Shown here: positions 5,050 to 56,228 of the stretch, in pieces | Position numbering within the stretch: position 1 is the first letter of the stretch | Layout of the letters: each line of letters opens with the position of its first letter | From: Phyto melanocephala | Taxonomy: Eukaryota > Arthropoda > Insecta > Diptera > Rhinophoridae | Assembly (NCBI GenBank): GCA_941918925.1 | Contig: OW799233.1 | Coordinates: forward strand, 57,069,841-57,133,840 | Direction: 5' to 3' | Length of the DNA: 64,000 nucleotides | The notes under the pieces: model-generated | Databases searched by the model: none | What the model was told of the DNA's origin: nothing | What the model saw: only the letters and a program-made list of their open reading frames with translations | Made by a program: the position numbers and the translations under genes

Positions 5050-6020
5050 TTTATGGACGGAATGGCAGGTGCTGGTGTGTACTCATCTGAGTTGGACTTA
5101 TCCTGCACCCTGAGTCTGGGGGAGTACGTGTCGGTCTATCAGGCGGAAATGCTTGGTTTGCTGTTGGACCACCTGTTGGAATGTCGAATGTATGGGAAGA
5201 AAATTCTTATTGCATTTGACAACCGGTCGGTTATAAAACGTATGCAGCGGATGGATGTGAACTCCTCTTTGGTGCTTGAGTGTGTTCTAAAGCTCAATAG
5301 GTGTGCCTCTACAAATGAGGAAACGCTGATGTGGGTTTAGGGACACGTGGGCATAGCTGGGAATGAGGCTGCTGACGAACTTGCGGTGAAGGGGTCTGAG
5401 GCTGCATTCTGTGGACCGGAACCCAGAACTGCTCTGGGCAATGGGTTAGTGCGGGCGAAGATCTTTTAATGGATTCTGTAAACTTGCGAAGGTGGATGGA
5501 GGGAACCACGTGTAGACAGGCTCGTATGGTGCTCAGGGAGCCACTTCGCAGGGGTGCAGTGAAGATACTCGGTTTTAATCGGAGTATGATGAGCTGGATC
5601 ACTGCGTTGATTACAGGACATGGTAACTTCAAAAATCATCTGAAGAGGATGCGGATCGTGGATGATGATATCTGTAGAATGTGCCTGGAGGGTGCCGAGA
5701 CGGCAGCGCATGTGGTATGCGAGTGTCCGGCGTTGGCGAGCGTAAGATTAAGGGTCACAGGCAAGCACACGTTGAGTGTTAGTGCGATGGGGGGCCTTAG
5801 TCTGAGGGAGATGCTGGCGATTACAAAGGACTGTGCGATGAGGATTGTCAACAATCACCAGTCGGCAGTGTGAAATCGTTTTTCTAGTCCAGAGCAAACG
5901 CCGGTTTTGGCGCGGGACTCAGTGATTGAGGGTGTGCTGATCGGTGGACACGAAATCACTGGGGAACGAAGGGGGTCGAAAAGGGACCCGTGGTAGTAGT
6001 GGTCTGCTTCGATATTCCCC
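4487..6020 (+). pseudogene. 5'-truncated non-LTR retrotransposon ORF2 (RNase H and zinc knuckle)
   Basis: Encodes the C-terminal part of a LINE-type ORF2. An RNase H domain runs from about 5031 to 5400: IFTDGSFMDGMAGAGV has the first catalytic D, YQAEMLGLLL the E, LIAFDNRS the second D, and GHVGIAGNEAADELAV the final H/D region. A C-terminal CCHC knuckle follows at about 5680-5740 (CRMCLEGAETAAHVVCECPA), and the frame ends at 5871-5873. The reverse transcriptase is missing through 5' truncation. Two lesions are visible: TAG at 5338-5340 inside the RNase H motif, and a frameshift near 5467 after a TAA. RNase H plus a terminal CCHC suggests the I, R1 or LOA groups; I cannot choose between them. 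The flanks AAAGGTACCTA and AAAGGTGCCTA look like a target duplication in A2. No poly-A tail is obvious. Confidence 0.88.
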
Positions 6021-11383: not shown

Positions 11384-12700
11384 CAGGGTTGCCCATATTC
11401 GACGGACCCATCTGGCAACGCCATAACTTTTGACAGAGATGTCAGATCGCTTAATGACATACCGCGTTTGAAGCGTCAGTCCAAGCAGATTTTTACCATG
11501 CAACAATACACGAGACGCGAGCGCTCTGAAATAGTTGAAATTTACATTCAACAGAACAAGTCAATTGTGAAAACTCAACGTGCTTTTAAAATATTAAAAA
11601 ATGTGAGAAGTGCGCCTTCTAAGAACACCATTAAGCGTTTATACGAAAAATTTTCGACTGGTGAGGCTCTTTCTAATCCGAAGAGGCCAAATAAAAGTCG
11701 ACCAAGGCGATCGGCCGAGAATATCGCTGCCGTACGAGCCAGTGTTGAGAGGTCCCCAAGAACATCCCAAAAACGCCGTTCTCAGCAGTTGGGCATGGCT
11801 CGGTCCACTTTACAACGGATTATTCGCGTTGATTTGCATTTGTTCCCGTACAAAATTCAATTGACGCAAAGATTGTTGCCTGTGGACAAGCCTCGTCGAT
11901 TGGAATGGGCCCAAAGAGTCATCGAAATGGCCGAAGATGACGAGCAATTTTGGAACAAAATTATCATGTCCGATGAAGCCCATTTCACATTGAATGGGAC
12001 CGTAAATAAGCAAAATTGCCGTATTTACGCCACTGAAAATCCTCAGGAGATTCAAGAAGTGCCTCTTCATGACGAAAAAGTCACAGTTTGGTGCGGCGTT
12101 AGTGCGAAAACGGTCATTGGGCCGTTTTTCTTCCAAAATGAAAATGGCCATGCTGTTACCATCAACCAGGAGCGTTATCGCGACATGATGACCAATTTTG
12201 TGATGCCAATTATTCGTCGAAAGTGTATGAGGCAGTTCTGGTTTCAACAAGACGGCGCTCCACCGCACACAAGTCGCATAACAATCGATTTTCTGAAGAA
12301 TTTGTTTCCGGGCCGTTTGATGTCGAAAAGTGGTGATTTGGACTGGCCACCGCGTTCGCCCGATTTGACGCCGCCTGACTTCTTCTTGTGGGGATATTTG
12401 AAGTCAAAGGTTTACGTTAACAAGCCAAGGACCTTAGAAGAGCTCAAGGACAACATTCGTGAACAAATAGCCGCTATTCCGGCCGAAATGTTGGCGAAAA
12501 CGATGGAAAATGCTGCAAAAAGGGCACAGTACGCCATCAACGCCAGAGGCGGCCATTTGAGAGATATCATATTCAAAAATTGATGTAAACAAATCTACTT
12601 GGAAAAAATTAAATGATTAAGATTGCCAACCGCCAAATTTTTATTTTTTTCTTTGATTTTTTAAAAAAAAACATGGGTCCGTCGAATATGGGCAACCCTG
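11384..12700 (+). mobile_element. Complete DD41D (rosa-like) mariner transposon
   Basis: 1317 bp bounded by perfect 28-bp terminal inverted repeats, at 11384-11411 and 12673-12700, starting CAGGGTTGCCCATATTCGAC. It is flanked by TA on both sides (11382-11383, 12701-12702), the target duplication of Tc1/mariner elements. It lies about 30 bp beyond the head of an A2 element and holds one uninterrupted transposase gene. Perfect ends and an open frame point to recent arrival. Confidence 0.95.
11498..12583 (+). CDS. Mariner transposase, DD41D type
   Basis: Cut-and-paste transposase of the Tc1/mariner superfamily. It should bind the 28-bp ends and insert the element at TA dinucleotides in the nucleus. 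I start at the ATG at 11498 (ACCATGC context), giving 361 residues; the upstream in-frame TTG at 11468 is an unlikely start. Residues 1-55 and about 85-115 form the paired-type helix-turn-helix region (RRERSEIVEIYIQQNKS; RRSQQLGMARSTLQRII), separated by SRPRRSAENIAAV. The catalytic acidic residues are D159 (IIMSDEAHFTLNG), D252 (WFQQDGAPPHT) and D294 (SPDLTPPDFFLWGYLK). Spacing D252-D294 leaves 41 residues, the signature of the rosa group first described in Ceratitis rosa; classical mariner has 34. All expected motifs are present and there is no stop or frameshift. Whether it is active cannot be told from sequence. Confidence 0.94.
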   Translation: MQQYTRRERSEIVEIYIQQNKSIVKTQRAFKILKNVRSAPSKNTIKRLYEKFSTGEALSNPKRPNKSRPRRSAENIAAVRASVERSPRTSQKRRSQQLGMARSTLQRIIRVDLHLFPYKIQLTQRLLPVDKPRRLEWAQRVIEMAEDDEQFWNKIIMSDEAHFTLNGTVNKQNCRIYATENPQEIQEVPLHDEKVTVWCGVSAKTVIGPFFFQNENGHAVTINQERYRDMMTNFVMPIIRRKCMRQFWFQQDGAPPHTSRITIDFLKNLFPGRLMSKSGDLDWPPRSPDLTPPDFFLWGYLKSKVYVNKPRTLEELKDNIREQIAAIPAEMLAKTMENAAKRAQYAINARGGHLRDIIFKN

Positions 12701-21000: not shown

Positions 21001-21047
21001 GTTCGGGCAAAGACAATAGCTATATAGTCTATTGTCTTTGGTTCGGG
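21001..21047. repeat. Palindromic insert with 7-bp target duplication (copy 1)
   Basis: A 33-bp palindrome at 21008-21040 has perfect 12-bp arms CAAAGACAATAG and CTATTGTCTTTG around CTATATAGT. It is flanked on both sides by the 7-mer GTTCGGG (21001-21007, 21041-21047). A second copy at 32764-32802 has the same arms and a different duplicated 7-mer. This is the expected shape of a transposon excision footprint, or of an element reduced to its ends. Confidence 0.88.
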
Positions 21048-21579
21048 TTTTTACTTTTATTCATTCAAAAAATAATTTCTCGATATTTCAGGTGAATTCA
21101 ATTATATTTGATTTTTATGAATTTATAAATTTACCAGAAAAATAAAATTTAAAAAAAAAATCTAAAAACCTTGAAAGTTATTCAGAGAGTGTAAGGAAAT
21201 AACGGAATTTGAAGCAAATTTTTTTCTTAAGAACAGAAAATTTAAAACACAAATAGAAATTGTTTTTACATTTTATGAACTTTTTTATTTTGTATATTAA
21301 ATTTTAAATTATTTAAATAATTTTGTATTTTTTTCATTATAGTAAAGGATCATTATTCAAAAAAATTTATCATTGGCCCTTCAATACACGTAAGATATAC
21401 ATTTAATTTCATTCTCTTAAATATTATAAAAAAATTAAACAAAAATAAATACGTTTAGCTGAAAGTAAATATGTACGTTTAAATGCTTCAAAATCCATAT
21501 GCTGAAACATTCTCAAAATAAATGCTAGATATCGGCCATGGGAAAGTAGCTGCCTATAAAAATGCTGGATGCATAAAAT

Positions 21580-22065
21580 TGCTGACCGATTTCTGCGCAA
21601 CCATTTATTCGAAAAGTGCTCTCATTGATCAAATATTTCCCGATATACCCACTTCTATACTCGGGTCATGAGTTTCTGGCAGAAAGAGTAATTCTGGCTG
21701 AAAGAAATGTATTCGTTAATTTTCACGATACAACCGATGTTGCCAGGGGACTTGGTGTCATACAAATCTATAGATACAATTTGCAATACCAACGAAGCAG
21801 TAAATAATTCCGTAGAGTTTTTAAACTTATTAGATTTGCCAGGCATGCCACTGTATCATTTACAACTTAATGTCGGATATCCGGTTATTTGCTTAGGCTG
21901 TGCAATGACATGCGATAAGTCATTAAAAAATTAATGAAGAACGTTGTCGAAGCTAGAATTTTGAATGGAAAGTCCTGAGGAGAAGCTGTATCACAAATGT
22001 GCCAATTGAATTAAAACGTTTACAACTTCCAACTAGATTGGCATTCGCAACGACAATAAATAAAT
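21580..22065 (+). pseudogene. Helitron/Helentron PIF1-like helicase remnant
   Basis: The C-terminal half of a Helitron Rep/helicase is readable across several frames. LTDFCATIYSKSALIDQIFP leads to HEFLAERVILAERNVFVN (frame at 21616). LPGDLVSYKSIDTICNTNEA then EFLNLLDLPGMPLYHLQLNV follow (frame at 21707), then KKLMKNVVEARILNG, and finally ELKRLQLPTRLAFATTINK (about 22007-22060). These are conserved blocks of the Helitron helicase in their proper order. Frameshifts, stops and a deletion after the PGMP block make it non-functional, and the Rep domain and helicase N-terminus are missing. It is the only trace here of a protein that could have moved Helitron-type elements; kinship with the INE-1-like families is not shown. 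Confidence 0.85.
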
Positions 22066-22846
22066 AAATATCGTACACTTCATTGCACTAAGAGAATAAT
22101 GTTTTTTTTTTAATTGTCATAATTAAGAATAGAGATGTAATTGAAAACTTATTAGTTGAGTATATAAAAAAAGTACAATGAATTCAAAAAATTAATACAA
22201 AATTAACACTTGTAATAAATTATTTGCTTTTTATTTGACTACTAGAAATAATTTATAAACGTTGATTTGCCAGGTCAGCAAAAGTTTAGTGAGTATACGA
22301 AAATATACGAACAAATGGAGGAATATAACAGAAATTGCACTTGTAACAATAAAAAATTTATTTTGACTAACAGCGATATCAGAATTTATCTCAAAATTAT
22401 AACAATACAGAAAAATATTGTCTGGGCCAGCAATGTGGCCCTAGTTTAGCTAGAATTGCTACAGAAATAAATTTATAAATGTATTTGATATAGTAGGATT
22501 ATTTATAAGCTGTTTTAAGAAATACAAATCGGAAATAACAGAGTTATCGATCTTTCTTAATCTCAGTTACTCAAATTGCTATTTGTCTCATACCCGGAAT
22601 TTTGTAATACTCTCAGTTATACCCAAAATCATAAGTATCTAACTTTTTTTAGGTTATAAAAAAAATACACTGTGTTACAATAATTTCGGCAATTTTTACT
22701 TTTTTTTTATTGATCTCTCAAAGGTTATGTAAAAATACTGATAACATTTGCTTAAAGGGACTTTTTCTAGAGGTATACAAATTTTAGTTGGTGATGCTGT
22801 TTGATTTGTGTGACTTTTTGATAGGTGTTGCTGGTTTTAAGTTTAG
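22066..22846. other. AT-rich spacer with an unassigned open frame
   Basis: The open frame at 22267-22449 (QKFSEYTKIYEQMEEYNRNC) has somewhat protein-like composition but no recognised family. Otherwise nothing is seen. Confidence 0.4.
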
Positions 22847-23026
22847 TTGGGTCTTCAATCTCATCATCCAATTTTTTTAAACGACGAAGGTTATTTTTGC
22901 GTGTATGGTGAAAAGGATAACAGCGGCGGCTGGAGTTTAGATTTGTGGATTAAAGAAAAACCATTTTATAAGGAGAAAGCCACTATAGATATTGATCCAC
23001 AATTAAATGTCATTAACTTAGAAAAG
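22847..23026 (+). CDS. Candidate coding exon, unknown product
   Basis: Sixty codons open in one frame, with composition far more protein-like than the surroundings: NDEGYFCVYGEKDNSGGW, SLDLWIKEKPFYKEKATI, then DIDPQLNVINLEK. Stops (TAA, TAG) lie immediately upstream in the same frame. TTTTAAGTTTAG just before it could be an acceptor, and AAG|GTGTAA just after it a donor, giving a 180-bp phase 0-0 exon. I do not recognise the domain. It could be a host exon in a large AT-rich intron landscape, or a piece of an unknown element. Confidence 0.35.
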
Positions 23027-25744
23027 GTGTAAAACATTGCAATTTAACACTGCGCAACTATTTAGGCAGATAGATAACATATACACGTATCCATGACATA
23101 CAATTTCTATAAAAAGTTCTTACAAATTTTATTTTTTTTATGACAATTATTACAATTTTTATGTGTTTTGTTTTAAATTAAAGTGTTATACTACTAAAGA
23201 ACACAACGCCTTAGAGACATTCTGAAAAAATATTCGTGGACAAATACCACCAAAAACTGAATTGCGAATGCTGTAGTAATCTTGTAATTTATTTCAATGT
23301 GTGCTGCTCTCAAACAATGAAGGAAAAACTTTTCTCTCTATATGTATATCTAAAGATGCATGTTTATTTCGTCCTAGAATTATGCAATTTAATTGAAAAT
23401 TTTTAAAATATTTTTCGTAACATTTTCATATTAATAAAATACCAGACGATGTTAAAGTGTCGGCAAGTATGAAACTCTGAGATAGATATTCATACGAGCA
23501 TAAATACAATAAAGTTTGGAAAAGTTTTAATGAAATTTCTATAATCATCTTATGGAGTGTTAGCAAGTGTTACTACCCACACTAATCTACGACAATTTTG
23601 CTTACCTCTGTGTGACATAAGTACATATGTAAGTATATAAGGACATATATACGTCCTTTATTTTACATAAATATTATACATACAAAAATGTAAAATAAGA
23701 TATTTAGATAAAATGTTCACAGGGAACATAGGGCGTAAGTGTAGCCGTTTTTAAATGTCACACTGATTTTGTTCCACTTAATGTCTCCTCCATTCGGTTA
23801 TTACAAAAAACTTTGTGGCTACAAGTTGAATCAACAAAAATTTATTTACGTTTCAAACGTACACACATACAACAAGATTTTTTAAATTTTTTTGATACAA
23901 AATTTTGAAATCGACTTGATATTGTGACAAAATATTTTATACGCCCATTTGTGAGAAGAATATTGATAGTTTGTAGTAAAATTGTAAGGCAAAAACAAAA
24001 ATCGTTTACCACTTCTCTTTAGAATAATTTTTTAAATAAAACAAATGTCCGTTTATCCAACTTAATTATGTAAATCTTAAAATGATGGAAGTGGCGTTTA
24101 CACACATTTATTTTGATTATTAGAAAAAATTATCAATCTTAGTTTGAATTTTCAATTAATTTAAATTTAGGTAAATTTTATTTCAATAATGCGAGCCGAA
24201 ATATTAATTTTTTTTTGTTTACAGTTTAATGGTTGTTAAAGCGATTTAAAGAGAGTGTAACAAATTTGAAAGACAACCGATCATCGCGAAAGTTTTTGAC
24301 AAATTTTCTATTCATATAATATTTAATTGTGGTGCGTAATATACCAGAAAAGCATTTAATTTTTATTATATTTAGGTTGAAAATTAAATTGGTTAAACAT
24401 ACTTATTTGTATTCACACGAAACCTATTTGTATTGCATTTGATTTGAATAGGCGATCGATTTGGATTTAATATAGAAAAATATTCTAGTTGATCTTTTTT
24501 TAAGTATTTGTAATAAAAATTTTTGAAAATCATTAAACACAAACAATTTGTTATGAGCCGATAGACATACCCGTATGACGGACATTGCTTACTCCACTAA
24601 GAATATTTTAAGGTGGTTGTATGCATACATACACACATGCATATTTATGAATGCAGGATTGAAGGTTAAATCCTAGTTAGTTGTCAGTTGACGTACAACA
24701 GGTTAAAAATTTAAATCAGTGATTAGTCGTAGTAGCTGAACTAACGTAAAAGAAGTAAATGTGTCGTTGACGGAAACAGACGCTTACGGTCGTAGTTATT
24801 TTAAGTTTAATAATATGAATGCGCTGTAGCCATTAATCTAAGTTATTTTCTTTAATAAATGATTACATTATTTCCAAACAGTCGGAGTATGGAAGTTCGT
24901 TTTATTGACAGACCCAAATTGATCCTGCATGTACATATTTATACTTACATACATATGCACGTGAAAAATATCTCCAACCTCTTAGTTTTATAACACTCAC
25001 TTTTATTTACGAGCTCACCCTAATACATATAAAAATATATCCTCCGTGATCAAAGTGTACAATTTAAAGTTGAAAAGTCTAATGCAATTAAAACTTTTTA
25101 AAAGTTATTTTTTTTTTATTTCCAATTAACATATACATAGGTACACAAACACATATAAATATTTTTGTCACATTCAAAATCATTTGCTTTTTTCCCATAA
25201 ATACTTTATTATATACTGGTCAGACTTAGATTGTGTGGTTGGTAACATTAGAAGTACTTAAAATGTTATGTTGTGGCACAATTTGGTTTCACTTATAAGT
25301 ATGTATGTATGTATGTAGTTTCACTAGAAGTTTTCAAATTACATCCTGCATAAGCCACCACAATTAAATTATGCTAAATGTAGGAACATTTTATAAAATT
25401 TCCTTTATACCCAGTCGTAGTATTTTGGCCCAAAACTAATGTAATTATTAGTAGACAAACAACGAATGTGTTTCTTTTATATGTAATGCTTGTGAAAGAA
25501 CAGAGTATGCAAAATTATTAACCGGTTAACAAGTAAACAATTCACCTGTATGTGTGAAAACACATGTAAGCTTAAATGCATGTGTCAATGTGTATATATG
25601 TTTAACATTTCTGTAAGATGTAAGCTTGGTTAAAAATGTATGTTTACTACACATTCATTTCAAAAGGGTGTCCCAAAATGACCATTAGATTTGAATTAAA
25701 GAGAAAACACAATTATTAGTACTTTGATGGTTTTTTTTATCTTT
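23027..25744. other. Long AT-rich spacer
   Basis: No gene, transposon end or repeat family recognised. Confidence 0.55.
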
Positions 25745-26045
25745 TTATAAAAAAAGAGTGTCGTGACTGAATAACTACTACTGATTCATCGTTTTTCATA
25801 ACTTCGATATGCTAGTAAAATATTTTCGTAAATTTAGTCTTTCAATGAAAATGGGCGTTAAAGTAGGCGTGTCAATATAGTTTTTGCTAATATATAAAAC
25901 TTAGACATTTCGATATAGTCCTTTATTCTTCCACAACTTTATTCATAAAGTAATTATATGAGTTGGAGGTAAAGCGTTATATGGGAGGTTGGCGTGTCAC
26001 TTTCATTTTCTGGCATAACAATGAATATACTAGGAAGCCATATGT
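25745..26045 (-). mobile_element. B-type INE-1-like fragment
   Basis: A reverse-oriented internal piece: GGGCGTTAAAGTAGGCGTGTC and GGTAAAGCGTTATATGGGAGG are the complements of B blocks found at 33485 and 42843. Confidence 0.6.
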
Positions 26046-26418
26046 ACGCAATTTTATCATCATACCTCTAATATTGTCCGTTTTATGAGCTTTTAAATTT
26101 AAATTAACAGTAGATTATGTAGGGATTTCACCATGCAGAAAACTTTGTAATTTAGTAAAACGTGGAACACAATCATTAGAGGGTAGAAAGGAGAAAACTC
26201 ATGTAGTTTTTGTATTTTATACGTTATTAAATATAGAATTTTGAAATTTAAGATTATTGATTCGACGTGAGACTGAAAATTTTATGGGCCCCAAAATGTC
26301 CTCTTAAGTATTCTTATAGTACCTTTTGTATTTTCTACATTTGTCAAGGTAGAATTTTGACAATAGAAGCATTTGATCCGTGATAAGACTGTACAAAAAA
26401 ATTACATTTTTGCTTATT

Positions 26419-27180
26419 TATACCCACCACTAAAAAAATGGAGGGTATACTCATTTTGTCATCGAAATATCCATTTTCGATCCCATTGTCATTGACTAAT
26501 GACATCATTTTAGGACGATCTAGCTAAGTCTGTCCGACTGTTGAAAGCTTGATAGAGCTTGAACCGAAAAAACTAGGGGGCTCAAATTTTGCCAGAATAT
26601 TTCTTATACACAGGGTTAGTTTGGAATCGAATGGGCTATATCGGTGTATTACGAAGAAAGTTATGGCTCTTAATGCAAGAGTTGGTCAAAAAAAGCATCT
26701 CCTTTCAACATCGTATACAATGAAATTGTGCCTAAAAGCATTAAGGTAGAGCAATGAAATTTCGAATGTATATTTCCTGAGTAAAAAAAATATCTTTCCC
26801 TAAAATTTCTAAAATATATGAGTTAGGAAAGGAGTTGTAGATCAAAATGTACGAAAATTTATACCGCACAGTGTCTTTTTCGTTATATTCAAAGTTTAAA
26901 ACAGAATAAAACTGACAAAATCAGATTTAAAACCCTAAAGTTTTACAAAAACTGCTCTTTTATCTAACGACTTGCACTAACGGAAAATTAAGGTGACACG
27001 GTCACTTTAACGCCCACCTCCTATATAACGCTTTATCTCAAATTCATATAATTTCTCTATAAAAAGAGATTTTGGAAGAATAAAGGACCGTATATTGAAA
27101 TATCTGAGTTGCGTTTATTAGAAACTATTTTGATACGCCTACTAAATATAATGCCCACTTTTCGCGTAATCTTGAGCTAG
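26419..27180 (+). mobile_element. B-type INE-1-like element, 3' truncated
   Basis: The head TATACCCACCACTAAAAAAA with GGAGGGTATA, then ATCGAAATATCCATTTTCGA, GTAATGCAAGAG-like and AACGCCCACCTCC blocks. It lacks the tail hairpin. Confidence 0.75.
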
Positions 27181-27292
27181 ATTTTTTATATTAGTGACTA
27201 CTGATCCTAGGCGAGACGAAAAGTTTTAAGGGTGCAAAAAAGGTACTTTTACGCATTTAATGATATTGTACTTTTTGTATTTATTTACGTTT

Positions 27293-28205
27293 TTATACAC
27301 TTTACACTGCAGTATAAAAGAGTATGTATATGTTTGTTATTCCGTGTGAAATTTTTACAATATTCATTTCCAACCCAATAAAGTGTATATTTTCCGAAAA
27401 CTTATGGGGAATCGATTAAACATTATTCTTCTGTCCGTCAGTCCGTGTTAATGTTGAAATCAACTTTTTGAAATCCCCCGACAACGCCAAGATCCGCCTG
27501 AATTATAAAAATATCAGTAATATTTGAGAGCAGATCGATATTTCAAGTCATCCCCTTATAATTTTCTGAGATATGAGCAAATAAACACAACTGTCTCTGT
27601 TTTTTTGTTTTTTTTTACTACAAAATTTAAATTTTCACAGCCTAGGATTATTTATAAAACGGTATACCTTTAGAGATATTCGTGATAAACTGTGCACAGT
27701 TTAGTATCTAATCGACAAAGTTATGGGCAAAAAATTGTTTTTAAAAAATATGTTTTTTAAAGCATTCAAACAAACTCCTTAATAATTTATTAGCATGCTT
27801 AAGATACCATATTATAAACCGCAATATCAGAAATTATTCCAAAAGAAAAAACTATCAAATTGGCTTAAAGCTTTTGTCTTCTTTAAACCCCATAACATTT
27901 GTGTCAATTTAAAGGGCTTGATGAGTAAAATATAGCAAATTATTAAAAAAGTGTAAAATGCAAGATGGCGTCCGAAACAAAATGTCAGAATAATTTTTTT
28001 TAACCCCAACAATGTGGGTATTATATAAAAGAGCTTGACTATTAGAATACAGTTAACTATGAAAAAATTTAAAATCAATTATGGCGGGTTAAATGAAATC
28101 CAAAATCTAGGCTTAGCTACCATGTGGTGTTTAAACTTATAATTGTACATGACGGTGAAGGGTATTATCAGATTCGGTACAGGCGAATATAGTGCTCTTA
28201 CTTGT
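27293..28205 (+). mobile_element. A2 INE-1-like element
   Basis: The head is degraded (TATACACTTTACACTGCAG). The body has ATTCATTTCCAACCCAATAA, GTGGGTATTATATAAAAG and AAGATGGCGTCC, and the tail ATTCGGTACAGGCGAATATA with CTCTTACTTGTT. Complete in extent but old. Confidence 0.75.
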
Positions 28206-28639
28206 TGAACATAGATTCATACAATTTTGAATTATTGATCCAAGGTGAGAATCGAAATTTGTTGTTTCTCATTCTAATGACTCTTTTTGTATTTTTGATG
28301 TTTTGCAATAAACTGAAATTATTATTATTTTTAATTTTGGAATTAGGTATTGTTAATCCAAGTTGAGTTTGTAAATTATAGAGAAGCACAAAATGGTACT
28401 TTTATTATTTTAATAGTTTCTTTTTTGCATTTTCTGAATTTATGAATCTAAAATTTTGAAACTCAAAAGCATTGATCTGGGTTGAGATAAAAGATATTTC
28501 CCCGATATATTCTTACAATACTTTTTATTTTTCTAAACAGAATTAATCAGATTAAAAAGTTTTCATAAATTTAACGTAAACTTGCGTGATACTTAAAAAA
28601 AAGAACTTGTGTATTCAATAAATAGTATGAACTGCGCTA
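28206..28639. other. AT-rich spacer
   Basis: Nothing recognised. Confidence 0.5.
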
Positions 28640-29470
28640 GCGATAGTATAAAGGATACGGTATTTTACGGAATAAAACATGGTGCAATTGGCCATTACGG
28701 CTTTGCTTGCGCATTTGTATGCACCCTTTTGTCGAAATTTTTTATGATCATTTTGCATAAAAGTGGCCTAAATTCCTTGATGCAGCGTTGAATCTCTTCC
28801 ATTCGTGCACGGGTGGTTGTGGGCTTTTTGATACATATTTGACATAGATTTCAAATAATCACATAAACAGCAATTTAATCTAAGAAAAACTATTATTATC
28901 ACAGAAACGATTAAGTACTCGACCTAAAAATATCTAATGTCGTAATGGATTAGTTTCGCGGGCTGTATAGCATATGCCACTTTCTTGTTGAAACCACATA
29001 TTGGCCATATTAATATCATCAAATTTCAGTAGAAAGAACTGTGTTATCATGTTGCAATATTGAACTCCAATAAGAGTCACTGCTTGACTAGCCTCATTAA
29101 AAAATTATGGTCCAAATCCAAGATCCTCACCAAAAAATGACACCTTTGCATTTGTTTTTTTGCAGTTACATGTGGGTTCTCGGAACCCCAAAAGTGGTAA
29201 TTTTTACGACTAACAAAACCATCAAGGTGAAAATGTGTGAAAAATCAGCTTCTCTTAATTTGCAATTCTTGTCAATGAAGCCGAATTAAGGTTCTTCGAT
29301 TGTCACCGACACTCACGAACTGCTTCAGTATTGATATTGAAACGGCTAGATTTTGGACGACTTGTGTATTTGGCGTCTCCAATGGATACAGTCTCCCTGG
29401 GTTTTTCAATTTATTTCTTCATAGTGGACGAAGTTAAAACACTACACCGGCCATATTTTGTATGAAGCTT
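28640..29470 (-). pseudogene. Decayed mariner-like transposase, minus strand
   Basis: On the minus strand most of the catalytic domain can be followed through stops and frameshifts. NEASQAVTLIGVQYCNMITQ is followed by FDDINMANMWFQQESGICY (MWFQQ block at about 28982-29000) and TARE. IFLGRVLNRF then leads to a damaged WPPRS/DLTPL region, and RARMEEIQRCIKEF comes near the C-terminus. The second catalytic aspartate, in WFQQDG, reads as glutamate here. Spacing to the damaged WPP block equals that in the intact DD41D element, so it probably belongs to the same broad group but a different family. Confidence 0.78.
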
Positions 29471-30839
29471 TCATTATTTTTGAAATATTGTCCAATAATG
29501 AAGTTGTTGTATAGTTGTTTTAACTAACCAGAAACTTTCAGCTGTCAAATTATTTTTAATAACTGCGCAAATGGTGCCAAATTTAAATCTTGTGGTAATT
29601 TCGGCGTACCCGTTATCTACAAACATCTCTGCATGCGTGTGCATGTTTGTACTTTGTGAATTTGTTTTCGAAAATTGAGGAAAGTGTTTCTCCTTTGATT
29701 GTTAAAAGTTGTTGTATACGCATTCGACATAAAACTACTCGTACAACAACTGTAATGTTTTAAGCGTTTTTCAAGTGATACTTAAAAGCTGTGACATTTA
29801 AATTGCTTCTAGTAAATAAATTACAAAATAAACAATAACAACACATTCATAGTAGCTGTACTATACTTAAGATTGTGTTTACTTTTAAACCTGATGAAGT
29901 ATTTGAATAATTATCGACCCATGAAGATTTAAATGCCACAAAAAACGAAAGTGTTAAATTAATAATGTTTTAATTTTTCATTATATCTTAAGGTTCTCAT
30001 ATGAGTCTAATGGAAATGTTCACTAAATCACATAGAAATACATTTATACTTTTACACAAGTCTCTAAACATACATATGTATGTATATCTATGTATGTATG
30101 TATGTATAGACATTGTAAGTTAAACAATTATAGTTTAATTATATACTTACATAAATATGTTTGCATGAGTAATTGAAATTATTCTGTAATCTTTTGTCAA
30201 TAATCATTCAATTAAAACAAAATCGAAAACAGGCTTTAATTGGGCACATACATATGTATAGTTTTTTTTTTCTCTAAAACATGCTTAAATTAGGGTTGCC
30301 AATCCCGAAATCCCGATATTTTTATAAAAATGGATTATTTATAAAATATTTTAAAAAGTACTTCTTATTCTGGCAGTTATTTTCATTCAACTGTTAGAGA
30401 CACGGTTAAGTGATTTTCGTGTATGACTGTCTAATAAAATATTAGGCTTCACAATAAGACGGGTGCAATAAATTATTGCACCCAAGCACCAATTATTGTT
30501 TGCACATGGAATTCATCTGCCAATTGTTAATGTTTTTTTACCAAGATTTTAGTTGTGCAAGTGAAAATGATACATCTTAATCAGATGGTGATAACGAAGA
30601 ACAACAGGACTAAATTAAGTTTTGGGTTCTTAAAACAAATACTGATGGATCAAATTTCTTTTTATTTGCAAACGTTTTTGTAAATTGGAAATACCTATTA
30701 AAAAAGCATTAATATATTAAAAATTACAACAAATAGGTGATACAGAATTTGCTATATTTAAACAAATAACAGATGAAGCCTTTTGCCGTAAATAATGAAT
30801 TTAGAAAAAGCCTCTCATTTATGCTTAAAGAAATTTCAA
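29471..30839. other. AT-rich spacer
   Basis: Contains a short imperfect TATG array at about 30075-30110. No gene recognised. Confidence 0.55.
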
Positions 30840-31595
30840 AAATCTTTATTTATTCGACGGTCCGTGTGTTTTGTTTAAGTCAACTTATAAAAATCCCAAC
30901 ATTTCGTACAATCCAGTACAATTTCACCATGGCTTTCGGAGAAATGAGCAAATAGACACGACTGCTTCTGCTTTACAACCCCTAGAACAATTTAAATACA
31001 CGTTTGTTAATATTAATAGATATAATATGCCGCTTTTCGTGAAAAAAGTCTGTACAAATCAAAAATGGTTTTTAAAATTATACATTTAATATTATTTAAA
31101 TATTTCAAGCTACTAAAGCTTCTCAATTATGTTTGGGCATGGTGGGCCGTACTCAAGAAAGTTTTTTCTGAAAATAACTGTTAAGTCTGTTAAAAACTAA
31201 CTGAGAAAAAACTACAATATAATACACTATAAAAACTTTAGAATCCATGGTGGCCGGCACTACTAAATGGAATACAATAAATTCATATGAGGGTCATAGT
31301 GATTAAAAATGAATCCACTTTAAAACCCCCAATTTAATATCAAATGGAAGAGCTTAAACTACGAAAAAGTTAAAATCAATTTTTGTTTAACCTTGACTAG
31401 TAGAATACAGCTAACAGTGCAAAACTTCCAAATCAGCAATGTCATTGGAAATAATTAAAAATGGCGTTGGAAGTAATAAATCACAAGGGCGTATGACATT
31501 AAATGTGTAATCTATCCTCACCTACGATGTGGTCACTGTACATATGTACATGATGGTGCAGGGTACTATCAGATTCGACACTGCGATATTTTCAA
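30840..31595 (+). mobile_element. A2 INE-1-like fragment
   Basis: Recognisable blocks are GACGGTCCGTGTG, GAGCAAATAGACACGACTGC, ATATAATATGCCGCTTTTCG, CATGATGGTGCAGGGTACTA and the tail stub ATCAGATTCGACACTG. The head is missing. Confidence 0.6.
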
Positions 31596-31599
31596 TGAC

Positions 31600-31882
31600 A
31601 ATTTTAATGTTAAATTATTGGGCACGTCGATGAGTCGACCAACAGCAATGTTTTCAGCAGAAAGATCTGGGCGATCATGCACAGGTAATTTCACGTTTCC
31701 TTCAGAACCAGTTTGCTAAAATTAGCGCAATTTGCACAATTATCCTGATTGTGGACACATTTAGTCGATTACGCTGATCAAAAAAAATCGCAAAGTGTAC
31801 GAAATGCATTTTGATTTTAACCCGAATTTTGGTAAAAGGCTTCAACAATCTTAACGCGCTGCTGAATTGTGTACTTCTCCAT
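31600..31882 (-). pseudogene. Mariner-like transposase N-terminus, minus strand
   Basis: Starts at a minus-strand ATG at 31882 with MEKYTIQQRVKIVEAFYQNS, a typical mariner N-terminal helix-turn-helix opening. NRLNVSTIR and, in another frame, DLSAENIAVGRLIDVPNN (the conserved SAENIAAV region) follow. Stops and frameshifts are frequent, and nothing of the catalytic domain remains. Confidence 0.75.
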
Positions 31883-31895
31883 GGTTAATAGTTTC

Positions 31896-32623
31896 AAATA
31901 CAGAAATAAAGAAATGTCAATTTAAGTTATGCAAACAACTTGACGTTACGGTAGGACTCACAATTAACATTGTGCGTTATGTTTGGATTACCCTTAACAA
32001 ATTCAATTATAAACTGACTCAGATTTAAGCACAAATTACAACTGTAAAGTTATTATTTTTAAAATTTTTGAAATAATAATTTTTTTTCAGCTTCCATACA
32101 ACAGACTTGCTCATAGTAAGTATCAAATTGGGGACCTTGACTAGTAGAATATAGTGTATTGTAATGTAGTATATTCTATATTGAAGATATAATTTTTAAT
32201 CATTTTTCGTTTAGGCATAAATGCATACTGGCCTTAAAATTATAATTTGCGACATATGCAATTTTATTTTCAGAAATTCTCAAATTTGTGACAGTAAATT
32301 CAAATTATTTTTTCTAATTCACCTTGAAATTGGCTGTAAAGACTTGGCATTTAACTTAAATTGCATGAACATAATTTTCCAATCTTAAAACATATAAGAA
32401 TTTCGAAAGGAATTGAAAAATATTTAACGAGATTGTTTATGTGAACATTTATGAAATTCTATATTCTTCATTATGAACTTTTATTAGTCATAAAAAAGAA
32501 AACGTTTAAGCATGTCTTGATTTGTTTAAAAGTATATAACAAAAGATATGTTTGAATGTTATACCTATTACAAAGTTACAAAACAAAATGCATTTTTGCT
32601 CTTCTGAAAACTTAATTAAAAAA
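31896..32623. other. AT-rich spacer
   Basis: Only a possible A2 scrap (CTTGACTAGTAGAATATAG near 32137). Confidence 0.5.
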
Positions 32624-33187
32624 AACAAGTAACAGTGCTATATTCGGCCGTTCCGAATCTTATTTACCCTTCACAACGTGTAGTCGTGCAATAACAATTG
32701 TTTGTATTACCATTCATCTCATATGAAATACGTACATACATATACAAAACATCCCATTGCAGAATTTAAGCAAAGACAATAGTCTATTGTCTTTGATTTA
32801 AGTTTACGTATGTATGTTTCAAAAAAATAAATAAAAAAAATGTATTAAAAACATTCGATTCGATGCCACGTTTACTTTAACCAGTTTATATGTATGTTGT
32901 TGTTGTAATTGTGAAAAAAACGAGGTGTCCGTGGTTTCCAAAAGATATTTCTAAGAGATTGATACCATATTCAGATCTGAGGAACATATATGTAGTTGCT
33001 TCTAAAAGTTGATTTCAACCAACACACGAACAGACGGACAGACGGCCAGGGCTTAATCGACTCCTCTATTCATAAGCTTTCAGAAAATATATGCTGAATG
33101 GGGTCGGAAATGAAAATTGTAGAAATTACAAACGGAATGACAAAGCTATATATGTATACCCTTGTGAACCACAGGTGAAGGGTATAA
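32624..33187 (-). mobile_element. A1 INE-1-like element carrying a palindromic insert
   Basis: Tail AACAAGTAACAGTGCTATAT at 32624 and head ending GTGAAGGGTATA at 33186. The A-rich desert is shorter than in other copies. The 25-bp palindrome at 32771-32795 interrupts a stretch that is uninterrupted in sister copies, which supply the empty site. Confidence 0.85.
32764..32802. repeat. Palindromic insert with 7-bp target duplication (copy 2)
   Basis: CAAAGACAATAG, one T, CTATTGTCTTTG (32771-32795) flanked by ATTTAAG on both sides (32764-32770, 32796-32802). In other A1 copies the matching place has one uninterrupted sequence, so this is a true insertion with duplication of the target. Confidence 0.9.
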
Positions 33188-34769: not shown

Positions 34770-34820
34770 AATGTTACATTTAAAATTTTTTAATATTATT
34801 TTGAATTACATTTATATTTA

Positions 34821-34896
34821 GGGCCGTATTCATAAAAAATATTTTAGGTTTATTAAAGGCTTATTTGACCTAAAATATTTTTTATGAATACGGCCC
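34821..34896. mobile_element. 76-bp hairpin MITE, PIF/Harbinger-like
   Basis: Perfect 29-bp inverted arms (34821-34849, 34868-34896), starting GGGCCGTATTCATAAAAAAT, enclose an 18-base loop. TTA lies on both sides (34818-34820, 34897-34899). A 3-bp TWA duplication with a GGGCC-type end is what PIF/Harbinger elements produce. No coding capacity. Confidence 0.82.
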
Positions 34897-34899
34897 TTA

Positions 34900-49334: not shown

Positions 49335-49516
49335 GTGTACACTGCTGGCGGTACACACTTTATTTTTATTAGAGTGCCATGTGTACCGCCGGCGGTGCAC
49401 AGTTACTTGTGAATTCAATTCGATATATTTTTTGCGGCTTCCATGACTACCGGCGGTACACATGGCACCTGAGTTTATTATATTATCTGTGTGCTACGTG
49501 TACCGCCGGCTGTCAC
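49335..49516. repeat. Cluster of GC-rich palindromes (TACCGCCGGCGGTA type)
   Basis: Four variants of one motif occur in 180 bp: GTGTACACTGCTGGCGGTAC (49335), GTGTACCGCCGGCGGTGCAC (49381), ACCGGCGGTACACATGGCAC (49449) and GTGTACCGCCGGCTGTCAC (49498). 49374-49392 and 49450-49468 are perfect 19-bp inverted repeats that include GTGCCAT. It could be nested MITE termini or a cluster of binding sites. Confidence 0.75.
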
Positions 49517-55323: not shown

Positions 55324-56228
55324 ACCAGCTATGATGGTATTTTAAAGATGGATATGCCTGATGGGGCTTTCTTAGTCAGCTATGCAGATGACATCGCAGC
55401 TGTAATACAGGCCAGGACCACGGAAGATGCACAACGCAAACTTAACCAGGTCATAATACGTACGCAGAGCTGGTTGCAATCACATGGACTAGAGCTAGCC
55501 GCACATAAAACCGAGCTGCTGCTATTGACCGGGCGCCGTATGCCTACTGAAATTCTAATGAATGTTGGAGACATGGAGATAACCACGAACAAGTCTGCTA
55601 ACTACCTCGGCATAAGATTGGATACGAAATTAACTTTTCACATCCAGATTAAATATGCTAATGGCTAACGTAGGTGGACCCATTGAAAAAAGGAGAAAAT
55701 TACTGATGGAGTCGTGTAACAGTATCCTCCGCTCTCGGGTCACGGATACTTTAGGAAGTATCTTTACAAAATGCAAAAATGCAGTTCACCATACTGCATC
55801 TACGAAGGGGACGGCTATATTGACGATGCGGAGCATACGTTCGATGGCATAACGAGCGGGAATGGGTGGTTATGAGAGTAGGACCTATAACGCCGGAAAA
55901 CATTACATATAACATGATGGAGAAGGAAGAAACTGGAAGTACGTCGCAAATTTTTGTGAAAAAGTACTAAGATTGAAGAAAGTGGACCTTGATGAAATAT
56001 AAATAGCGGACTTGGACGCAAGCAGCACAGTTGATGGGGCGACGTAGCCACAGAGGGAACCACCTCGAAGTAATGCGAAAGCGGTCCCGAGGTGGTAAAA
56101 TTCCCTAGGTAACCAGGATGGTTTTTAGTCGGTGCACTTCGCATGAGGGAGCCCGACATATCGCTAAAGCGATGGCTGTTAGTGAATGCGTAACAGCATT
56201 TCTCATCCTCCACCGCAAAAAAAAAAAG
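55324..56228 (+). pseudogene. Truncated non-LTR retrotransposon (RT palm and 3' end)
   Basis: Opens in the reverse transcriptase palm: SYDGILKMDMPDGAFLVSYA with the catalytic YADD (about 55378-55392), then HKTELLLLTGRR and SANYLGIRLD, the usual order after YADD. The frame shifts near 55655 into NVGGPIEKRRKLLMESCNSI, the thumb block. A further frame gives HGYFRKYLYKMQKCSSPYC and DDAEHTF, the C-terminal zinc-knuckle region. An internal deletion brings the thumb next to the knuckle. The 3' UTR ends in a poly-A tract (56217-56228), so the element is on the plus strand. The upstream in-frame TAA at 55321 marks the 5' truncation. It is a different family from the one at 4487. Confidence 0.85.

What the first reader, a model, noticed from the sequence alone, without database searches (positions are those of the whole stretch)
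21001..32802. Two tiny palindromes, same arms, each with its own perfect 7-bp duplication: footprints of an unseen transposon
21008-21040 and 32771-32795 share the 12-bp inverted arms CAAAGACAATAG/CTATTGTCTTTG. The flanks are GTTCGGG...GTTCGGG and ATTTAAG...ATTTAAG, so each insertion duplicated a different 7-bp target. Copy 2 sits in an A1 element whose sister copies give the empty site. Copy 1 differs from copy 2 only by eight extra bases, CTATATAG, which read as a templated repeat of ATAG/CTAT, typical of end-joining. The simplest reading is excision footprints that kept about 12 bases of each end. P-superfamily elements are known for long footprints, and 7-bp duplications are reported, as I recall, for the hoppel/ProtoP branch; that assignment is inference. 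The alternative is an element of 25-33 bp mobilised in trans.
Basis: partly seen in the sequence, partly recalled or inferred. Interest (0 to 1): 0.88.

Follow-up and report, generated by a model that had tools for sequence, protein, structure and literature searches.

The report
Scars of a departed P-type transposon
Two short mirror-image DNA sequences in this insect genome are made of the first 12 to 18 bases of the two ends of a P-type jumping gene that is present elsewhere in the same genome, and they are likely scars left when copies of it cut themselves out; at least 75 similar sequences occur across the genome, together a likely natural record of how broken chromosomes were repaired.

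Summary
The window's genome (740 Mb) holds 55 such palindromes (reversed-pattern control 0) plus at least 22 asymmetric ones. Of 72 sites whose flanks I read, 57 have a perfect 7-bp duplication, 6 match 6 of 7, 9 fail. The parent was found: 101 ends match CAAAGACAATAGACTATAM (two of them inside footprints); 25 of 30 ends read carry a 31-bp repeat; 9 of 10 end pairs read have perfect 7-bp duplications; copies encode a P-transposase RNase H C-terminal domain and a THAP-like motif. Of 100 footprint arms, 99 keep 18 nt or fewer; the only two microhomologies of 3 nt or more within those 18 nt give the two commonest footprints, 26 of 50. This fits P-type excision (17-nt 3' tails) followed by end joining. 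The 7-bp duplication and STTNAAS target resemble 1360/hoppel. Known kind, apparently new family; the notable part is a large natural record of P-type excision repair. The mobilising enzyme was not found.

The parts
21001..21007 (.). target duplication GTTCGGG, left copy
   Evidence: (L005, 7 of 7)
21008..21040 (.). excision footprint 1 (33 bp)
   Evidence: one end 12 nt, other end 18 nt of the parent terminal repeat
21008..21019 (+). 12 nt kept from one end of the element
21020..21022 (.). CTA between the two kept ends (short insertion, or loss of one A from the 34-bp form)
   Evidence: the reading is inference
21023..21040 (-). 18 nt kept from the other end
21041..21047 (.). target duplication GTTCGGG, right copy
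32764..32770 (.). target duplication ATTTAAG, left copy
   Evidence: (L006, 7 of 7)
32771..32795 (.). excision footprint 2 (25 bp), the recurrent 25-bp form, 12 of 50 sites
32771..32782 (+). 12 nt kept from one end
32779..32795 (-). 17 nt kept from the other end; ATAG 32779-32782 is shared by both ends (4-nt microhomology)
32796..32802 (.). target duplication ATTTAAG, right copy

Best explanation
The two palindromes are likely excision footprints of a P-superfamily DNA transposon whose 31-bp terminal inverted repeat and 7-bp target duplications are present elsewhere in the same genome. Shown: the parent element's ends, its 7-bp duplications, its RNase H C-terminal and THAP-like remnants, and at least 77 footprint-like sites whose arms are prefixes of the terminal repeat (or one-base variants of it), nearly all ending by position 18. 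Inferred steps: (1) a P-type transposase, most likely of the 1360/hoppel branch, inserted the element with a 7-bp duplication; (2) later a transposase cut the element out with long staggered cuts, leaving about 17-18 nt of each end as 3' single-stranded tails on the broken chromosome; (3) the tails cannot pair along their length, so they were joined by end joining at short internal complementarities, ATAG/CTAT (giving 25 bp) or TATA/TATA (giving 32 bp), or nearly blunt (34 bp), or with short extra TA-rich or copied bases; (4) the duplication that flanked the element stayed, so each scar reads duplication - end - end - duplication.
For: 55 palindromes genome-wide with exact 12-bp arms, control 0; an asymmetric pattern gives 119 strand-wise matches, control 0, with 22 further sites among the places listed. 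Perfect 7-bp duplications at 40 of 50 sites read of the first set and 17 of 22 of the second, 57 of 72 in all; none of the 57 extends to 8; flanks paired between different sites agree 7 of 7 in 0.45%. Parent: 101 ends match CAAAGACAATAGACTATAM, control 0, two of them inside footprints; 25 of 30 ends read carry all 31 bp; 9 of 10 end pairs read have perfect 7-bp duplications, the tenth 6 of 7. PF21789 TNP-like_RNaseH_C E 3.3e-9 in L111 and 1.4e-5 in L112; Drosophila P transposase 6p5a E 0.0039; THAP-type C2CH spacing in one L111 copy. Arm lengths: 99 of 100 arms of the first 50 sites and 44 of 44 of the 22 others are 18 nt or fewer; 0 places keep 21 nt on both sides, 2 keep 21 or more on one side. 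The only two complementarities of 3 nt or more in the first 18 nt give the 25- and 32-bp products, 26 of 50 sites; random joins in the detectable range would give 15 of 57 for 18-nt tails (P 1e-4) or 13 of 44 for 17-nt tails (P 7e-4). The P element has 31-bp repeats and 17-nt 3' extensions (PMC7776569, passages); P excision junctions recovered from Rad51-mutant Drosophila show the same classes: short AT/TA overlaps, blunt joins, templated or TA-rich inserts (PMC2895639, passages and parts of tables).
Against: No excision was observed. 9 of 72 sites have 5 of 7 or fewer duplication matches. No copy carrying the catalytic N-terminal part was found: of 65 high-identity fragment matches on C1-C5 that I compared with 81 of the 87 PF12017 matches, the nearest pair is 4.4 kb apart, and both lists were capped by the tool; so the mobilising enzyme is unidentified. 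The THAP motif is intact in one of three copies checked: the second L111 copy lacks it and L112 has a stop inside it, and Pfam gave no THAP match. Whether the tail is 17 or 18 nt cannot be told, because TATA at the cut fits both. One arm keeps 23 nt. The patterns used favour footprints that keep at least 12 nt of one end, so deeper deletions are missed. In the P junctions of PMC2895639 long-microhomology joins that remove most of both tails are common; such scars could not be detected here.
Confidence: 0.93

Rival explanations
1. The palindromes are themselves tiny non-autonomous elements (25-50 bp) mobilised in trans by a transposase that recognises the outer arms, each inserting with a 7-bp duplication.
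For: They have terminal inverted repeats and 7-bp duplications, and two forms recur often (14 and 12 of 50). End requirements can be modest: the Anopheles P-MITE paper infers that about 100 bp per end suffices there (PMC1562414, passage).
Against: The 50 read sites hold 14 different sequences (counting both strands as one), 8 of them once only, most explained by joining the two ends of a larger element. They lack the inner 13 bp of the terminal repeat and everything beyond; deleted D. melanogaster P copies are reported to need at least 138 bp and 216 bp at the two ends (PMC1562414, passage). Among the first 50 sites only one pair shares even one flank above 60% identity, so no site looks like a copy of another with its surroundings.
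Confidence: 0.03
2. The palindromes are extreme internal deletion derivatives made by interrupted gap repair, not by end joining of cut ends.
For: The family is internally deleted in the copies read, and short copies with intact ends seem to exist, for example facing ends about 240 and 280 bp apart.
Against: Gap-repair deletions have no reason to stop at nt 12-18 of both ends; only 2 places keep 21 nt or more at one end within the searched distance, none at both.
Confidence: 0.03
3. Unrelated palindromic repeat or assembly artefact.
For: None found in these calls.
Against: Control pattern 0 against 55; different duplications at different sites on several contigs; sister repeats without the insert.
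Confidence: 0.01

Closest known systems
P element excision footprints (Drosophila melanogaster)
   Same: 31-bp terminal repeat, up to about 17 nt of each end kept, joins at short overlaps, TA-rich or templated inserts, duplication kept (PMC7776569 passages; PMC2895639 passages).
   Different: Duplication 7 bp, not 8; terminal repeat sequence different; here the junctions are natural and spread over a genome, not recovered in a laboratory assay.
1360 / hoppel / ProtoP
   Same: 7-bp duplication and target motif GTTNAAC (PMC3276498, passages with table rows); the STTNAAS motif here fits it best of the motifs tried.
   Different: Protein phylogeny and terminal repeat sequence not compared; no 1360 sequence was at hand.
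Galileo
   Same: P superfamily, 7- or 8-bp duplication, palindromic target GTANTAC/GTATTAC (PMC4168063, passages).
   Different: Galileo has long, internally repetitive terminal repeats (abstract of PMC3573991 in the listing); here 31 bp.
Natural excision footprints of rice DNA transposons
   Same: Footprints read from genomes as a record of break repair: 94 putative excisions from comparing two rice species (PMC4423477, passages).
   Different: Found by comparing two genomes; mostly deletions and filler DNA, only eight perfect excisions. Here one genome, one P-superfamily family, ends kept up to nt 18.
Second P-superfamily family of the same genome (L017, L020-L038, L040-L045)
   Same: THAP to RNase H C-terminal order; roughly 30-40% amino-acid identity over most shared parts.
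   Different: L028 has the full domain set PF05485, PF12017, PF21787, PF21788, PF21789; its terminal repeats could not be read.

Membership tests
P superfamily | P-type transposase (THAP, RNase H with GTP-binding insertion) | tested here: inconclusive
   RNase H C-terminal domain PF21789 E 3.3e-9 and 1.4e-5, 6p5a E 0.0039; THAP C2CH spacing intact in one of three copies, no Pfam THAP match at E 1 or better. Catalytic N-terminal part and GTP-binding insertion not found in the copies read.
P superfamily | about 31-bp terminal inverted repeats | tested here: met
   31-bp identical run, CAAAGACAATAGACTATAAAGATGTTGCACT; in 25 of 30 ends read. That P has 31 bp is from PMC7776569.
P superfamily | 7- or 8-bp target duplication | tested here: met
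   7 bp at 9 of 10 element pairs and 57 of 72 footprints
P element proper | 8-bp target duplication with motif GTCCGGAC | tested here: not met
   0 of 57 perfect duplications extend to 8; poor motif fit
1360/hoppel branch | 7-bp duplication, motif GTTNAAC | tested here: met
   14 of 57 match 6 or more of 7 (N counted as a match), random window 7-mers 0.6%
1360/hoppel branch | transposase groups with 1360 in a tree | not tested
   no 1360 protein at hand; the family's own catalytic region was not found
Galileo | long, internally repetitive terminal repeats | tested here: not met
   terminal repeat identity ends at 31 bp in the L111 copy measured
P-type excision footprint | duplication plus about 17 nt of each end, joined at microhomology | tested here: met
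   17 or 18 nt not resolved
MITE | short element with conserved ends able to transpose, many copies of one sequence | tested here: not met
   14 different sequences among 50, arms stop inside the terminal repeat; transposition itself not testable here

The most novel reading that the evidence does not exclude
The genome holds a readable fossil archive of germline double-strand-break repair: each scar is one excision with known starting ends, and the spectrum (two microhomology products, blunt joins, iterated TA and 7-nt copies) is that of polymerase-theta-type end joining acting in the germline over evolutionary time; moreover intact copies persist mainly in the P-rich central zones of the chromosomes while scars dominate the arms, so excision or its repair would depend on chromatin.
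Probability: 0.5. Interest if true: 0.65.

Novelty: new member of a known kind. Interest (0 to 1): 0.5.

Why it matters
Footprints of P elements are well known from laboratory crosses, and natural excision footprints have been collected by comparing rice genomes (PMC4423477). Here at least 77 footprint-like sites of one P-superfamily family sit in a single insect genome with intact ends still present, so the starting DNA ends of each break are known. That would let one read natural germline repair choices outside model species, count departures as well as arrivals of a transposon, and predict where the mobilising enzyme cuts. It also warns annotators that 25-50 bp palindromes with 7-bp duplications need not be mobile elements.

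Tried and rejected
Considered and rejected: trans-mobilised mini-element, gap-repair deletion, chance or artefact (see rivals). The idea that copy 1's eight extra bases are a templated repeat was rejected once the terminal repeat was known. A full-length partner was sought: L112 is an internally deleted copy with an unrelated stretch inside; the copy with a 542-residue open frame (L114 joined to L055) is a fusion with a stretch that looks to me, by recall, like a retrotransposon polyprotein. A PF12017 match near a family end (L025/L113) belongs to the second P family. The viral-contig scan gave 0. One search found the arm string in 2 papers, both on pulmonary hypertension in rats; only the listing was seen. 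Listings showed no census of natural P-type footprints in a genome; the rice study above is the nearest I saw. That is a statement about those open-licence searches only. Papers: passages only of PMC4168063, PMC7776569, PMC10983969, PMC1562414, PMC2895639, PMC2775673, PMC3276498 and PMC4423477; none was read whole. Terminal-repeat variants (CAAAGACTATAG in 10 of the 22 second-set footprints) could not be checked among intact ends, nor could the wide palindrome pattern, because the tool stayed unavailable. On re-checking I added, which confirmed the L111 and L112 duplications and counted the 31-bp ends.
Full report
Observation. Both palindromes and both 7-bp duplications are present at the stated coordinates. 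In the window the exact arm occurs only at these four places; among 77 palindrome hits with arms of 11 or more and loops of 0-199 they are the only two with a direct flanking duplication of 5 bp or more. Ten first-order Markov sequences gave no palindrome (arms of 12 or more, loop up to 20) with a 7-bp duplication, against two in the window. Copy 2 lies in a repeat whose sister copies in the window align across the site without the insert, though without the exact heptamer.

Genome-wide copies. The window lies in a 740-Mb assembly of 9 contigs. The pattern with both 12-bp arms and 0-20 bases between them occurs at 55 places, reversed control 0. I could place 50 of the 55 (the output was cut) and read their flanks: 40 have a perfect 7-bp duplication, 5 have 6 of 7, 5 have 4 or fewer. 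An asymmetric pattern (16 nt of one end, 5 of the other) gives 119 strand-wise matches, control 0, and adds 22 sites among the places listed, also a cut list. I read all 22: 17 perfect, 1 with 6 of 7, 4 lower. Together 57 of 72 are perfect, 6 have 6 of 7, 9 are lower; none of the 57 extends to 8 bp; flanks paired between different sites agree fully in 0.45%.

Parent element. The footprints predicted a terminal repeat CAAAGACAATAGACTATA; the search for it followed by A or C gave 101 ends, control 0, with at least seven facing pairs 3.1-3.3 kb apart in the list; two of the 101 lie inside footprints. In an L111 copy the two ends are identical over 31 bp, then differ; 25 of the 30 ends read carry all 31 bp. 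Of 10 pairs whose outer flanks I read, 9 have perfect 7-bp duplications and one 6 of 7. The inside of L111 encodes, on one strand, a piece with PF21789, the RNase H C-terminal domain of P-type transposases, E 3.3e-9, weakly matching Drosophila P transposase, 6p5a, E 0.0039, and upstream of it a piece with THAP-type C2CH spacing; that spacing is lost in the second L111 copy, has a stop inside it in L112, and gave no Pfam THAP match. The catalytic N-terminal and GTP-binding parts were not found in the copies read. A search with the fragment returned 150 scored matches of 344 candidates; those at high identity are this family, those near 30% mostly a second family. The second family has the full domain set in L028 (6p5a E 1.1e-22). 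Its 27 protein matches include named ones from Episyrphus, Teleopsis and Calliphora (flies), and weaker ones from Aphis and Temnothorax; the host is likely a fly.

Reading the scars. Measured against the terminal repeat, the 100 arms of the first 50 sites keep 18 nt (57 arms), 17 (17), 12 (15), 14 (5), 16 (4), 15 (1) and 23 (1); the 44 arms of the other 22 sites match for at most 18, some for only 5-7 because of single-base changes in the arm. The pattern could not show long arms at both sides, so I tested this directly: no place has 21 nt of one end followed within 30 bases by nt 12-21 of the other, and only 2 places have 21 nt or more of one end with at least 7 of the other (the letters of one were not shown). 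The cut therefore most likely leaves 17 or 18 nt; the two cannot be told apart because the bases there are TATA. P transposase leaves 17-nt 3' extensions (PMC7776569, passages). Within the first 18 nt the only complementarities of 3 nt or more are ATAG/CTAT and TATA/TATA (and sub-words of them), with products of 25 and 32 bp. These are the two commonest scars, 12 and 14 of 50. Random joins in the detectable range would give them in 15 of 57 joins of 18-nt tails (P 1e-4) or 13 of 44 of 17-nt tails (P 7e-4). The 34-bp form (6 of 50) is a blunt join of 17-nt tails or a 2-nt overlap of 18-nt tails. Forms with extra TA, or with a 7-nt repeat of neighbouring bases (the 39-bp form; the second 32-bp form, 5 of 50), look like copied bases; that is inference. 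P excision junctions from Rad51-mutant Drosophila show the same classes (PMC2895639, passages and parts of tables); joins that remove most of both tails, common there, would be missed here. In the window, copy 2 is the 25-bp form; copy 1 keeps 12 and 18 nt with CTA between, or is the 34-bp form that lost one A.

Which branch. The perfect duplications have the symmetric motif S-T-T-N-A-A-S with an A/T preference three bases outside on either side. 1360/hoppel has 7-bp duplications and motif GTTNAAC, P has 8 bp and GTCCGGAC (PMC3276498, passages with table rows); Galileo has 7 or 8 bp and GTATTAC or GTANTAC (PMC4168063, passages). The 57 duplications fit GTTNAAC best (mean 4.6 of 7 against 2.7 for random window 7-mers; GTANTAC 4.2; the better of two 7-base slices of the P motif 2.6). 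This works like a P element and is probably related to the 1360 branch; a tree was not possible.

Where the scars are. On contigs C1-C4, 58 of 76 listed intact ends but 26 of 71 scars lie within 15 Mb of the median position of the PF12017 matches (Fisher P 1e-6); counting merged loci, 38 of 50 against 26 of 71 (P 2e-5); with the 10-90% range of those matches instead, 47 of 76 against 25 of 71 (P 0.002). The lists were cut by the tool, C5 and C6 were left out, and I chose the distance after seeing the positions, so this is a lead only: intact copies persist in P-rich central zones, scars are more often on the arms. That these zones are heterochromatin is inference.

Verdict. A real, well-explained feature: likely excision footprints of a P-superfamily transposon. 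The kind is known, and natural footprint collections exist for rice (PMC4423477, passages); the family and the size of this P-type record are the new parts. Open: the mobilising enzyme, the exact cut, and direct evidence of excision.

Noticed in passing
window 34820-34897: Perfect 30-bp inverted repeat with an 18-bp loop, beginning AGGGCCGTATTCATAAAAAATATTTTAGG; no exact flanking duplication of 4-11 bp; possibly a small inverted-repeat element.
   Followed up: no
window 49347-49509: Cluster of inverted copies of a GTGTACCGCC-type motif.
   Followed up: no
window 11468-12583: Open frame of 371 aa with a helix-turn-helix match DUF4817 (PF16087, E 6e-9); looks like a Tc1/IS630-type transposase (recall).
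   Followed up: partly
window 55324-55665 and 5400-5870: Reverse transcriptase match (PF00078, E 3.7e-8) and a weak zf-RVT match below its cut-off: retroelement remains.
   Followed up: partly
window 21692-21931: Weak Pif1 helicase 2B-domain match (E 2.9e-4, below the curated cut-off), perhaps a Helitron remnant.
   Followed up: partly
L052, L053, L113: In L052 and L053 a family end lies directly beside the 100-bp right end of another copy; L113 has the same 100 bp followed by other sequence. This suggests a self-insertion that later spread; inference.
   Followed up: partly
L115, L116, L119, L121, L125, L126, L129, L131, L132, L136: Footprints in which one end reads CAAAGACTATAG instead of CAAAGACAATAG (10 of 22), suggesting a subfamily with a variant end; the search for intact variant ends did not complete.
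   Followed up: partly
L017, L020-L038, L040-L045: A second, abundant P-superfamily family; in L028 one frame is open over all five transposase domains.
   Followed up: partly
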